Source of the DNA: Deltaproteobacteria bacterium
GTDB taxonomy: Bacteria; Desulfobacterota; Desulfobacteria; Desulfobacterales; Desulfobacteraceae
Direction: 5' to 3'
NCBI GenBank assembly: GCA_013151635.1
Contig: JAADHV010000031.1
Coordinates: 1 to 60,233, forward strand
DNA: 60,233 nucleotides
Shown: in pieces, positions 12,470 through 16,488 of the stretch
How the letters are laid out: every line of letters begins with the position of its first letter
Position numbering within the stretch: the first letter of the stretch is position 1
Translations under genes and position numbers: made by a program
Notes under the pieces: model-generated
Told to the model about the DNA's origin: nothing
Databases searched by the model: none
The model's input: only the letters and a program-made list of their open reading frames with translations

Positions 12470-12685
12470 ATGGCATCACAAAATGTAACCCTTAATGTAG
12501 ACGGCATGAGTTGCGGACATTGCTCCGGCACTGTTCAAAGAACCCTCGAAGAAATAGACGGCATTTCCAACGTATCTGTGGATCTTGAAGGCAAAAAAGC
12601 CACTTTTGATGCTGACGGTTCAGGACTTATTGACAAAGCGGTTAAAAAAATAAATGAGGCGGGATACAAAGCCTCAAATAAGTGA
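12470..12685 (+). CDS. HMA-domain metal-binding protein (CopZ/MerP-like)
   Basis: 71 residues forming one heavy-metal-associated domain. The metal site is GMSCGHC (residues 13-19), and the ferredoxin-like beta-alpha-beta-beta-alpha-beta fold is recognisable down to INEAGYKA. Such small soluble proteins bind Cu(I), Hg(II) or similar soft metals through the two cysteines and pass them on. AAGGATGA precedes the ATG. It lies only 30 bp upstream of hgcA in the same direction, so it may supply or buffer the metal used by HgcAB. No signal peptide is present, unlike MerP, so it acts in the cytoplasm. Confidence 0.85.
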   Translation: MASQNVTLNVDGMSCGHCSGTVQRTLEEIDGISNVSVDLEGKKATFDADGSGLIDKAVKKINEAGYKASNK

Positions 12686-12715: not shown

Positions 12716-13831
12716 ATGAAAGAACAAATAGATAAGGCAGATTTATGCTGTTCGACCCAAACTCCCGGCCTGGCGCCTGACTATCGGAAACCAGGCTTTA
12801 AATTATGTTCCTATGTGGACGATTTTGTCAAAACAAAGGCCGGACTTGTCCCTGTCATTAAATCAAAGCCTGGCAAAGACGATCTTTTTTCAAGTTTTTA
12901 TGTCAGGTGCGGCATAAAGCGGTATCAATATGCGGTTGCTCCAGGGCTTTATGGTATTGGAAAACCTGATAAAAATTCCGAGGTACTTGTTACTGCAAAC
13001 TTTAAATTAACTTTTGATCATTTAAGAAAGGAATTAAAAGACATTAATGCATGGATCCTTGTTCTGGATACAAAAGGGATCAATGTCTGGTGTGCAGCAT
13101 CCGAGGGTAATTTTTCAACCAGGGAGCTTGTAAAAAGAATTAAAGCCTCTTCCCTTGAAAAAGTTGTGGATCATAAAAGAGTCATTGTGCCCCAGCTTGG
13201 TGCAACAGGAGTATCGGCACGGGCTGTTAAAAAAGGGGCCGGGTTCAGGGTGGTATACGGCCCCATCCGGGCCAGTGATATCCCTGCTTTTTTACAGAAC
13301 AACAAAAAAGCGGATAAAAAGATGAGGCAGGTCACCTTTAATCTTTATGAAAGGCTTATCCTGACACCCGTGGAAATACAGATTGTTCTGAAACCAGCAG
13401 CAATCATAGCGCTTATCCTTTTCATACTTTCCGGTATAGGTCCTGGTATTTTTTCTTTTTCCGGGGCATGGGAAAGAGGAGTTCTTTCCTTCTCTGCCCT
13501 TGCAGCAGGTATATTTTCAGGCGCATTTGTCACACCTTTGCTGCTTCCTTTTATCCCATCAAGAGAATTTGCACTAAAAGGAATCATTGCCGGAAGTATT
13601 TTTGCAATTCTCCTTTTGCTTCTGATCTCATCTGCTGTTAACGGCATTGCAGAAGTCCTGGCACTTTTTTTATTCAGTGTTGCCATAAGTTCATATCTTG
13701 CCATGAATTTTACTGGGACAACTCCTTTTACTTCACCTTCCGGGGTTGAAAAAGAAATGAAAAGGTTTATCCCTCTGCAGCTCGGAGCCCTTGTTATTTC
13801 ATCCGGGCTCTGGGTATATTCAGCATTTTGA
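12716..13831 (+). CDS. hgcA: HgcA-type corrinoid protein (mercury methylation)
   Basis: 371 residues. HgcA is a membrane-anchored corrinoid protein that transfers a methyl group to Hg(II). Residues 30-215 match the corrinoid domain: a cap helix NVWCAASEG (123-131, Cys126 being the proposed lower axial cobalt ligand), then PQLGATGVSA, GFRVVYGPIRASDIPAFL and LTPVE, all typical of HgcA. Residues about 218-371 are hydrophobic with four to five membrane helices. The cap-helix motif differs from the published N(V/I)WCA(A/G)GK: Gly-Lys is Ser-Glu here. The segment near residue 10 adds a Cys-Cys pair (LCCST). hgcB follows after 23 bp. The related acetyl-CoA synthase corrinoid subunit (CdhD/AcsC) lacks this membrane tail. 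Confidence 0.88.
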   Translation: MKEQIDKADLCCSTQTPGLAPDYRKPGFKLCSYVDDFVKTKAGLVPVIKSKPGKDDLFSSFYVRCGIKRYQYAVAPGLYGIGKPDKNSEVLVTANFKLTFDHLRKELKDINAWILVLDTKGINVWCAASEGNFSTRELVKRIKASSLEKVVDHKRVIVPQLGATGVSARAVKKGAGFRVVYGPIRASDIPAFLQNNKKADKKMRQVTFNLYERLILTPVEIQIVLKPAAIIALILFILSGIGPGIFSFSGAWERGVLSFSALAAGIFSGAFVTPLLLPFIPSREFALKGIIAGSIFAILLLLLISSAVNGIAEVLALFLFSVAISSYLAMNFTGTTPFTSPSGVEKEMKRFIPLQLGALVISSGLWVYSAF

Positions 13832-13854: not shown

Positions 13855-14145
13855 ATGAAAGATTTAAGATATCTGGATGATGTATCAACCCTGGTTCTTG
13901 ATAAGGAAAAATGTATTGGTTGCAGCCTTTGCACTGAAGTCTGCCCCCAGGCTGTTTTTGAGATGAAAAAAGGGAAATCATGCATTGTTGATTTTAACGC
14001 ATGTATGGAATGCGGGGCCTGTGTAAATAACTGTCCTTCCGGGGCTTTATCCGTAAGCCCCGGGGTCGGCTGAGCCGCCTATATTATCCAGGTCTGGATA
14101 AAGGGAAAAGAGAATGCATCCTGTGGCAGCGGCGGATGCGGCTGA
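13855..14145 (+). CDS. hgcB: HgcB-type ferredoxin, probable selenoprotein (TGA at codon 73 read as Sec)
   Basis: HgcB is the ferredoxin that reduces HgcA and is essential for mercury methylation. Two [4Fe-4S] motifs are present: Cys20, 23, 26, 30 and Cys50, 53, 56, 60, including the family-typical CMECGAC. After GALSVSPGVG the frame meets TGA (14071-14073). Translation past it stays in frame for 23 codons (AAYIIQVWIKGKENASCGSG, then GCG) to a second TGA at 14143-14145, giving 96 residues, the normal HgcB length of about 95. In HgcB of Desulfovibrio ND132 a conserved cysteine occupies position 73 and cysteines lie at the C-terminus; here residue 73 is the TGA and Cys90 and Cys95 are in the tail. 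A SECIS-like hairpin follows at once. Without recoding, the product would be a 72-residue protein lacking the tail. Confidence 0.85.
14071..14101 (+). promoter_or_regulatory. SECIS-like element following the hgcB TGA codon
   Basis: TGA at 14071-14073 is followed, 10 bases later, by a perfect hairpin: TTATCCA (14084-14090), loop GGTC (14091-14094), TGGATAA (14095-14101). Bacterial SECIS elements need a small apical loop with a G at its first positions, about 16-37 bases from the UGA; here the loop begins 17 bases after it. The apex CAGGTCTG is the same as in E. coli fdhF, where the loop begins 18 bases after the UGA. Confidence 0.8.
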
Positions 14146-14192: not shown

Positions 14193-15371
14193 TTATTGAA
14201 TTTTTTGTTTCTTTTGAAATTTAAATTCAATAGTGGAAGGCCTTATATTTACGACATGAATCCTGTCATTTGGCAGAATGAAATTGCTTGTATTAATATT
14301 ATAAAACAAAGTGCCGGGCTTTGCTGAAAACAGATCAACAGAAGCAATAATATTGTTTTCATCTAAAAGGCTGACATCTTTTCTAAGCCCCCGGCAGATA
14401 ATCGATACTTTCGGGGCAACCGGTTGTAATACCATAAGCTGCGCCGGGGCATTCCTGAAGCTTAACGGCAGGTCAATTTTTTTTTCAAAATTCTGCTGCC
14501 CTGCCAAAGCCAGCCAAAGGATAAAAACCAGTGAAAAAACAGCGGCCTTCAGCTTATACCTTCTTGCAAACAAAGATTTTATTTTTTCTTTAATATCCGT
14601 ATCCGGCTCTTGGGGCCCGAGGACCGCATCCTCTATACGATCCGACAAATCTTTTATATCCTCTATTTTCCGAATTCCCTGGTCAAAAGCAAATGATACT
14701 TCCCCTCTTTCCTCTGAAATGATCATGACAAAGGCATCGCATTGTTCTGTCAACCCTAAAGCCGCCCTGTGTCTTGTACCCCATTCCTGGGGCAGATCTT
14801 CCCTTGTGGATAACGGCAGATAGCAGGATGTTTTTAAAATTCTCCCTTTTGAAATAACAATGGCCCCGTCATGCAAAGGAGACTCTTTATAAAAAATGGA
14901 ATTTAATATTTCCGGCTGGGGGTCGCACTCCATGCTGATCCCCTTGGTAATAAGATCAAACACCAGATCTGTTCTTTCAAAAATAATGACAGCACCGATT
15001 CTTTTTTTTGCAGCATCAAATGCCCAGGCGGCAAACTCATGAATCCAGCCATCCAATGAGGCCCCGGGTTTAACTCCAAAAATTCTCAAAGGATTAAACC
15101 GTTCAAGCATCTGCCTTATTTCTTTTTGAAAAAGTATGATCAACAGGATAACAAAGACCTGCCACAAAATCTGGAACACCCAGGTGGTCAAAAAAAGCCC
15201 CCAGGATTTGGCCACAATAAAAATTCCGCTTAAAAGAATTATGCCAATCAGGGCTTTAAAGGCTTTGGTGCCGCGAAACCAGTTATAAAGCTGATAGGAA
15301 ACAATGGAAATAAACAGGATATCAAGTATATCCGGCAGCCTGATATTTGACAATATGGCAAACAAATTCAT
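14193..15371 (-). CDS. CdaA-type diadenylate cyclase fused to a YbbR-like domain
   Basis: 392 residues from ATG at 15371, chosen because GGAGG lies 7 bases upstream; a longer frame to 15449 only overlaps pfk. Order of parts: three N-terminal membrane helices (about 1-75), a DAC catalytic domain with DGAIVI and the GTRHRAA motif (the DGA and RHR residues that bind ATP and form c-di-AMP), a further membrane helix (LKAAVFSLVFILWLALAG), and a C-terminal YbbR-like beta domain facing the periplasm. In Firmicutes the cyclase CdaA and the YbbR regulator CdaR are separate proteins. Here both lie in one chain. The product, c-di-AMP, controls potassium and osmotic balance. It follows pfk with a 14-bp overlap-free gap. 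Confidence 0.85.
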   Translation of the reverse strand: MNLFAILSNIRLPDILDILFISIVSYQLYNWFRGTKAFKALIGIILLSGIFIVAKSWGLFLTTWVFQILWQVFVILLIILFQKEIRQMLERFNPLRIFGVKPGASLDGWIHEFAAWAFDAAKKRIGAVIIFERTDLVFDLITKGISMECDPQPEILNSIFYKESPLHDGAIVISKGRILKTSCYLPLSTREDLPQEWGTRHRAALGLTEQCDAFVMIISEERGEVSFAFDQGIRKIEDIKDLSDRIEDAVLGPQEPDTDIKEKIKSLFARRYKLKAAVFSLVFILWLALAGQQNFEKKIDLPLSFRNAPAQLMVLQPVAPKVSIICRGLRKDVSLLDENNIIASVDLFSAKPGTLFYNINTSNFILPNDRIHVVNIRPSTIEFKFQKKQKIQ

Positions 15372-15384
15372 GGAGTATCCTCCC

Positions 15385-16488
15385 CTACATGGCTTCCCGT
15401 CCCATATTAATACCAATGGATTCAGCGCAGCGGATAAGTCCGGAATCAACAGACACTTTTCTTACTTTTCCTGCAAGATCCTTTAAGTTGACAAGAACAA
15501 TATCAGGGGTTTTCAGGGCTGCCATGGTTCCAAATTTCCCCTGGGCAGCCGCATCCACGGCAAAGCTTCCAAGACGGGTGCCAAGAACCCTGTCAAAGGA
15601 ATTTGGAGAGCCCCCTCTCTGGATATGGCCTAAAACGGTTGTGCGGACTTCAAGGTCGATCTTTTTTTCAATCATTTTCGCAAGATAAAACCCGACTCCC
15701 CCTAATTTTTCAACACCCTGGAGCCTGCCTTTTGCCTCCTGTGCTTTTACTGTGTTCCCATCCTTCTCCCTTGCCCCTTCTGCTATCATAATAATGCTGA
15801 AAGGGCTGCCGCCTTTTTCCCTGAACCGGATCTTTTTAATTACATTTTCAATTTTATACTCGATTTCAGGTATAAGGATAATATGGGCTCCTCCTGCAAT
15901 ACCGGCCTCAAGGGCAATCCACCCGGCATTCCTGCCCATAACTTCAAGTATCATGACCCGATGATGGCTTTTGCCTGTCGTATGCAAACGGTCCATGGCA
16001 TCGCAGGCCACCTGGACCGCTGTCTGGAAACCAAATGTATAATCTGTTTTTTCAAGATCGTTATCAATGGTCTTTGGAATTCCAACAACCGGTATACCTT
16101 TTTTAAAAAATTTATACCCGATTTCAAGGGTCCCTTCCCCACCCACGACAAAAAGGCAGTCAAGCTTCAAGGCTTTAAAGGTCTCAACCGCCTTATCTGA
16201 GTAATCAGTTGTTTTAATGCTGCCGTCAGCATTCAGCTCACGGTACTCAAAAGGGTTCCCTTTGTTGGTTGTTCCAAGGATGGTTCCGCCAAGTGTCAAT
16301 ATATCCTTGGTGCCTCTTACTGTAAGTTCCTGGGTCTGCCCTGAAATAAGACCTTCAAAACCGCCTTCAATGCCGATAACTTCTGCACCATGTTGTATAA
16401 CGGCAGCACGGGTGACCGCCCGGATCACCGCATTCAGCCCTGAACAATCCCCGCCCCCTGTTAATATTCCCACTCGATCTATTGCCAT
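15385..16488 (-). CDS. 6-phosphofructokinase
   Basis: 367 residues. The N-terminal GILTGGGDCSGLNA (8-21) and the catalytic PKTIDNDL (TIDND) and MGRNAGWIA segments define the family. The two residues that tell phosphoryl donors apart are Gly in GGEGT (position equivalent to E. coli 104) and Lys in PKTIDND (equivalent to 124). Gly with Lys is the pattern of the ATP-dependent group close to the PPi enzymes, so ATP is more likely than PPi, though not proven. ATG at 16488 with AGGAGG 7 bases upstream. It is the upstream gene of a pair with the diadenylate cyclase. Confidence 0.88.
   Translation of the reverse strand: MAIDRVGILTGGGDCSGLNAVIRAVTRAAVIQHGAEVIGIEGGFEGLISGQTQELTVRGTKDILTLGGTILGTTNKGNPFEYRELNADGSIKTTDYSDKAVETFKALKLDCLFVVGGEGTLEIGYKFFKKGIPVVGIPKTIDNDLEKTDYTFGFQTAVQVACDAMDRLHTTGKSHHRVMILEVMGRNAGWIALEAGIAGGAHIILIPEIEYKIENVIKKIRFREKGGSPFSIIMIAEGAREKDGNTVKAQEAKGRLQGVEKLGGVGFYLAKMIEKKIDLEVRTTVLGHIQRGGSPNSFDRVLGTRLGSFAVDAAAQGKFGTMAALKTPDIVLVNLKDLAGKVRKVSVDSGLIRCAESIGINMGREAM

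What the first reader, a model, noticed from the sequence alone, without database searches (positions are those of the whole stretch)
13855..14145. HgcB encoded with an in-frame TGA at its conserved cysteine: probable selenocysteine HgcB
The 72-codon frame stops at TGA 14071-14073. Continuing in frame gives 23 more residues with two Cys in the tail, to a total of 96, about the normal HgcB length. The TGA codon is residue 73. In Desulfovibrio ND132 HgcB, position 73 is a conserved, functionally important cysteine (from memory of mutagenesis work on HgcAB). A perfect hairpin with loop GGTC follows 17 bases after the TGA, with the apex CAGGTCTG found in the fdhF SECIS of E. coli. Chance loss of the Cys codon would not create this structure. 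A Sec residue in place of the thiol could bind Hg(II) or reduce it more readily. I do not know of a described selenocysteine HgcB.
Basis: partly seen in the sequence, partly recalled or inferred. Interest (0 to 1): 0.95.

Follow-up and report, generated by a model that had tools for sequence, protein, structure and literature searches.

The report
Selenocysteine version of HgcB mercury-methylation ferredoxin
This bacterium appears to read a stop codon in its mercury-methylation gene hgcB as the selenium amino acid selenocysteine; the evidence is strong, but such selenium-containing HgcB proteins were already predicted in print in 2023.

Summary
hgcB (13855-14145) has an in-frame TGA at codon 73 (14071-14073), where other HgcBs carry the cysteine reported essential in strain ND132. 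The frame continues 23 residues to a 96-aa protein that passes the HgcB model. A 7-bp hairpin with loop GGTC follows. The genome has selA, selB, selC and a selD with its own in-frame TGA. The hairpin alone is weak evidence (43 of 2461 TGA triplets in the window do as well). Comparison decides it: TGA stands at codon 73 in 54 of 146 parsed hgcB loci of the order (48 of 48 examined in the window's family, counting 3 fetched later). All 54 keep the identical hairpin stem: three Ile codons never change while neighbouring codons vary.

Best reading: selenocysteine insertion directed by a SECIS hairpin. Not new: Haft & Gwadz 2023 (not held; seen through two citing papers) predicted selenoprotein HgcB and HgcA; a 2026 review lists HgcB with motif GVGU, as here.

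Possibly unreported: none of 52 Sec-HgcB loci with a readable HgcA N-terminus has Sec in HgcA too, and HgcA's N-terminal Cys pair is mostly lost there. About two independent contrasts: a lead only.

The parts
12716..13831 (+). hgcA, mercury methylation corrinoid protein, 371 aa, NVWCAA cap-helix motif, N-terminal CC pair (not Sec here)
   Evidence: NF040863 426.9 bits; PF03599; motif reading
13855..14142 (+). hgcB coding sequence, 96 aa with Sec at residue 73
14071..14073 (+). TGA codon 73 read as selenocysteine; aligns with Cys of GVGC in other HgcBs
14084..14101 (+). SECIS hairpin: 7-bp stem TTATCCA/TGGATAA, loop GGTC starting 17 nt after the TGA
   Evidence: stem frozen in 54 of 54 Sec loci; zero third-base changes on the HgcA tree at codons 77, 78, 82 in 52 rows
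14143..14145 (+). TGA, taken as the actual end of hgcB
   Evidence: most relatives end at or near the same place with TGA, TAA or TAG
12470..12685 (+). small HMA-domain (CopZ/MerP-like) metal-binding protein upstream of hgcA, possible operon partner
   Evidence: PF00403; CopZ and MerP hits all under cut-off; a similar gene upstream in 6 of 45 Sec-HgcB loci with enough flank, by a simple motif search (its 46 include the chance match L179)

Best explanation
hgcB is a selenoprotein gene. The hairpin 14084-14101 acts as a bacterial SECIS: SelB with Sec-tRNA binds it and decodes UGA 73 as selenocysteine, giving a 96-aa dicluster ferredoxin with a selenol in place of the essential thiol. Without selenium, translation stops at residue 72 and the product lacks both residue 73 and the C-terminal cysteines, so HgcAB function in this organism should depend on selenium. 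Shown here: the reading frame, the position, the frozen hairpin, the machinery, the distribution. Inferred: actual Sec incorporation, selenium dependence, and the role of Sec73 as the acceptor of Hg(II) or methylmercury from the corrinoid or the C-terminal Cys (a role that the HgcAB model paper proposes for Cys73).
For: TGA aligns with the conserved Cys in 54 of 146 parsed loci; 90 have Cys, 2 could not be read, none showed another residue. In all 54 the stem sequence is identical: Ile77 ATT 54/54, Ile78 ATC 54/54, Ile82 ATA 54/54, against 8/36, 20/39 and 2/27 among the 41 Cys loci first compared. Third-base changes on the HgcA tree (52 TGA rows) are 0, 0, 0 at these codons, against 5 to 25 at 12 other codons with an invariant amino acid. 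Residue 80, coded by the loop, is Val in 52 of 54 Sec loci and 1 of 90 Cys loci. A pattern that does not ask for the hairpin found 59 stretches in the collection of 84,980 species genomes; 58 have the hairpin and the 59th looks like chance. selA, selB, selC, selD are all over their cut-offs; the selD of the same genome has its own TGA followed by a 7-bp stem with 4-base loop GATC 21 nt on (stem read by eye). Prior prediction in print.
Against: No protein or 75Se data. The hairpin of the window alone is within chance. The stem never varies, so there is no compensatory change to prove pairing; the argument is synonymous constraint, and nearly all Sec loci form one clade, so they are not independent. 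The Rfam scan at gathering threshold gave only a tRNA.
Confidence: 0.95

Rival explanations
1. The TGA is a true stop and hgcB is a truncated or decaying gene; the tail is a remnant.
For: The 72-aa ORF still holds both Fe-S motifs.
Against: The tail is conserved downstream of TGA in the 54 loci, with a frozen stem in all and 3 Cys after residue 73 in 48 of them; decay would not do this.
Confidence: 0.01
2. Sequencing or assembly error at one base.
For: The window comes from a 136-contig assembly.
Against: Same codon in 53 genomes of the main sample, and in three records not labelled MAG: Desulfocicer vacuolatum DSM 3385, Desulfospira joergensenii DSM 10085, Desulfamplus magnetovallimortis.
Confidence: 0.003
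3. UGA is decoded as another amino acid (Cys, Trp or Gly) by a suppressor tRNA or altered code.
For: Not excluded by sequence alone.
Against: hgcA ends at TGA, the genome has a full Sec pathway, and the frozen hairpin is unexplained by this.
Confidence: 0.015
4. Both products matter: the 72-aa ferredoxin and the 96-aa selenoprotein are made in a ratio set by selenium supply, a regulatory switch.
For: The truncated form keeps both CxxCxxCxxxCP motifs.
Against: Nothing here tests a function for the short form; in ND132 Cys73 is reported essential (PMC7305189 passages).
Confidence: 0.05

Closest known systems
Selenoprotein HgcB (NF040864, GVGU; WP_250697400.1), Haft & Gwadz 2023 J Bacteriol 10.1128/jb.00259-22
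   Same: Same family, same motif GVGU, one Sec (review table).
   Different: None found. The paper itself was not held, so its taxa and SECIS details could not be compared.
Cys-type HgcB, e.g. Desulfovibrio ND132 HgcB
   Same: Dicluster ferredoxin next to hgcA, conserved residue 73, C-terminal Cys (passages).
   Different: Cys instead of Sec at 73; in the 90 sampled Cys loci residue 80 is Thr, Ser or Gly in 80, and none has the hairpin. ND132 itself was not examined.
Selenoprotein HgcA (NF040863, CU; WP_250697417.1)
   Same: Same operon and pathway, Sec predicted in print.
   Different: Sec sits in the N-terminal pair of the partner protein; in this sample not found together with Sec-HgcB.
SAO system and putative mercuric transport selenoproteins
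   Same: Sec in organometal or mercury handling (review passages).
   Different: Different families and genes.

Membership tests
HgcB (NF040864) | Score over curated cut-off with two CxxCxxCxxxCP motifs, next to hgcA | tested here: met
   117.5 bits vs 99 with C given for U; hgcA upstream 426.9 bits
HgcB (NF040864) | Conserved residue 73 after GVG and Cys in the C-terminal tail | tested here: met
   TGA at 73, Cys 90 and 95; the adjacent CC at the end of most relatives is C-G here
Bacterial selenoprotein | In-frame TGA aligned with Cys of homologues and conserved coding downstream | tested here: met
Bacterial selenoprotein | SECIS hairpin just downstream of TGA, G in the apical loop | tested here: met
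   the criteria are recalled, and no SECIS predictor was run
Bacterial selenoprotein | selA, selB, selC, selD in the genome | tested here: met
Bacterial selenoprotein | Selenium in the protein | not testable with these tools
   needs 75Se labelling or mass spectrometry
Selenoprotein HgcA (CU) | Sec in the N-terminal pair of HgcA | tested here: not met
   the window HgcA has CC

The most novel reading that the evidence does not exclude
HgcAB carries selenium at only one of two places. Sec sits either in the N-terminal pair of HgcA (CU) or at HgcB 73, never both, and once HgcB carries Sec the HgcA Cys pair is free to decay. The two sites would then be alternative stations of one mercury or methylmercury relay. 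The passages of the HgcAB model paper that I saw do not include the HgcA N-terminal pair in such a relay.
Probability: 0.3. Interest if true: 0.6.

Novelty: already known. Interest (0 to 1): 0.4.

Why it matters
It means that HgcAB, the mercury methylation system, should depend on selenium across much of a family of sulfate reducers, and that a gene caller without Sec rules would cut these HgcBs at 72 residues. It also points to three named isolate genomes in which the role of residue 73 could be studied. The phenomenon itself is already in print; what is added here is the distribution in this sample, the evidence of selection on the hairpin, and the lead on Sec exclusivity.

Tried and rejected
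Single-sequence fold statistics: too weak to carry the case. Rfam scan: only a tRNA elsewhere. Covariation test: not run, because the stem does not vary. Pattern search in the phylum: one search had the wrong spacing (6 N instead of 7; it missed even the window) and is void, its two hits included; repeated, where only the window's own genome matched among 247 genomes. The Thermoplasmata match L179 has no ferredoxin upstream and no hairpin, so I take it as chance. A correlated-evolution test of HgcA pair loss against Sec-HgcB gave 2 independent pairs, not significant. Structure prediction was not run; the published HgcAB model paper was read in passages instead. No bacterial SECIS predictor was available.

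Full report
Observation. The window holds hgcA (12716-13831) and hgcB (13855 onward) on the + strand. hgcB runs 72 codons to TGA 14071-14073 and continues in frame for 23 residues to TGA 14143-14145. The 96-residue reading, given to the program with C for U, passes the NCBIfam HgcB model (117.5 bits, cut-off 99, residues 5-95), and the HgcA neighbour passes its own (426.9, cut-off 275).

Is it more than chance? Taken alone, not clearly. The 40-base fold has z -0.95, with 36 of 200 shuffles as stable. In the window 43 of 2461 TGA triplets on both strands, this one included, are followed by a stem of at least 7 pairs (G-U allowed) at about that distance with G in the first two loop bases. Relatives settle the matter.

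Comparison. A search of 389 genomes of the order with the HgcB model found 164 with a match over the cut-off. I took 151 distinct hgcB loci. Five (L199, L207, L222, L227, L233) failed my motif pattern and were dropped; one search lists no stop inside the match for any of the five. That leaves 146 loci from 144 genomes. At residue 73 there are 54 TGA, 90 Cys, and 2 that my pattern could not read. Every TGA locus has the hairpin; none of the 92 others has. In the window's family 45 of 45 parsed loci are TGA; three more family members whose matches were not listed were fetched later and are TGA with the hairpin too, making 48 of 48 examined. The other 9 TGA loci lie in six other families of the order.

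Selection on the hairpin. On the first 95 loci (54 TGA, 41 Cys) I compared codons. In TGA loci Ile77 is always ATT, Ile78 always ATC, Ile82 always ATA (54 of 54 each). In Cys loci that have Ile there, the same codons occur in 8 of 36, 20 of 39 and 2 of 27. On an HgcA tree, 52 TGA rows need zero third-base changes at these three codons; other codons with an invariant amino acid need 5 to 25 (codons 64, 67, 69-72, 74, 76, 83, 84, 88, 90), and Gln79, at the edge of stem and loop, needs 1. Residue 80, coded by the loop, is Val in 52 of 54 TGA loci and Gly in 2, but Val in only 1 of 90 Cys loci. Constraint on the RNA explains this better than constraint on the protein. Since the stem does not vary there is no covariation to show, and nearly all TGA loci form one clade.

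Wider distribution. A pattern that asks for GVG-TGA-Ala and Tyr-Ile-Ile but not for the hairpin matched 59 stretches in the collection of 84,980 species genomes. 57 have both the hairpin and a ferredoxin motif upstream, one (L143) has the hairpin but starts at the contig end, and one (L179, labelled Thermoplasmata) has neither. Apart from L179 the record titles are of Desulfobacterales kinds (Desulfobacula, Desulfotignum, Desulfamplus, Desulfobacterium, Desulfocicer, Desulfospira, Desulfobacteraceae, Desulfobacterales) or MAGs labelled Deltaproteobacteria or Proteobacteria. Three are not labelled MAG. In 247 genomes drawn over the phylum, 9 of them of the window's order, a pattern without the Tyr matched only the window's genome. 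Contig G237:C17 (same genus as the window; 197451 bases) has the same length as a Desulfobacula contig (L190), so the window's genus is probably Desulfobacula; this is inference.

Machinery. selB 356.8 bits (cut-off 242.25), tRNA-Sec 76.5 bits (gathering score 47), selA 596.7 (cut-off 267.9), selD 347.5 (cut-off 125) with one internal TGA. Read by eye, that selD has the stem TCCGACA-GATC-TGTCGGA 14 bases after its TGA, a similar geometry.

How it works. SelB with Sec-tRNA recognises the hairpin and decodes UGA 73. Passages of the HgcAB model paper (PMC7305189) report that Cys73 to Ala abolished methylation in ND132 and that at least one C-terminal Cys is needed for maximal activity, and propose that the C-terminal pair carries Hg(II) to the corrinoid and hands methylmercury to Cys73. 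By inference, Sec73 would take that role with a stronger mercury ligand, and selenium shortage would leave a 72-residue ferredoxin without these residues. None of this is shown here.

What is known. [quoted passage not shown] The table of PMC13188914 (passages) lists HgcB NF040864, motif GVGU, one Sec, WP_250697400.1, and HgcA with motif CU, WP_250697417.1. Haft & Gwadz itself is not held, so I have not read it. In the listings of paper searches, and in the passages I read, I saw no experimental test of Sec in HgcB; the held library is partial and I did not read the listed papers through. One paper (PMC11205478, one passage) names Desulfospira joergensenii among putative mercury methylators.

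A lead that may be new. In relatives HgcA has an adjacent Cys pair about 112 residues before the cap-helix motif, or Cys-Sec. Of 146 loci, 24 have CU by pattern (one of them, L027, reads C-S-U) and two more (L219, L246) have a TGA there without an adjacent Cys; all 26 have Cys-type HgcB. Of the 54 Sec-HgcB loci, 52 had a readable HgcA N-terminus, and none of these has a Sec there. The pair is absent in 41 of 51 Sec-HgcB loci and 2 of 81 Cys-HgcB loci scored on the tree (where I reset L219 and L246 by hand to not lost and left L243 out as truncated). Against the idea: the window itself keeps CC, as do 9 other Sec-HgcB loci. Sec-HgcB is one starred clade of 51 rows plus L105, which sits elsewhere; the quick tree needs 2 changes, so there are only 2 independent contrasts and no significance. 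L105 looks mosaic: its N-terminal part is closest to a Cys type (identity 0.772), its C-terminal part to Sec types (0.964), which suggests transfer of the 3' end with its hairpin, or convergence. Whether Haft & Gwadz noted the exclusivity is unknown to me.

Verdict. Real, well supported, and already predicted in print.

Noticed in passing
12470-12685: A 71-aa HMA-domain protein (PF00403) sits just upstream of hgcA; a similar gene was found upstream in 6 of 45 Sec-HgcB loci with enough flank. It could pass metal to HgcAB.
   Followed up: partly
L105 (G154:C6): hgcB looks mosaic: Cys-type front, Sec-type 3' end with the same hairpin, next to an HgcA of Cys-type lineage.
   Followed up: partly
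L096 (G374:C158): A second in-frame TGA in the hgcB tail where relatives have Gly; error or second recoding not decided.
   Followed up: no
14122-14142: The window HgcB ends C-G where most relatives end C-C, so its two tail Cys (90 and 95) are not adjacent.
   Followed up: no
L099 and L100 (G251): One genome assembly carries two different hgcAB pairs, both with Sec-HgcB.
   Followed up: no
14193-15449, minus strand: A diadenylate cyclase (CdaA type: DAC plus CdaA_N domains) lies convergent to hgcB.
   Followed up: no
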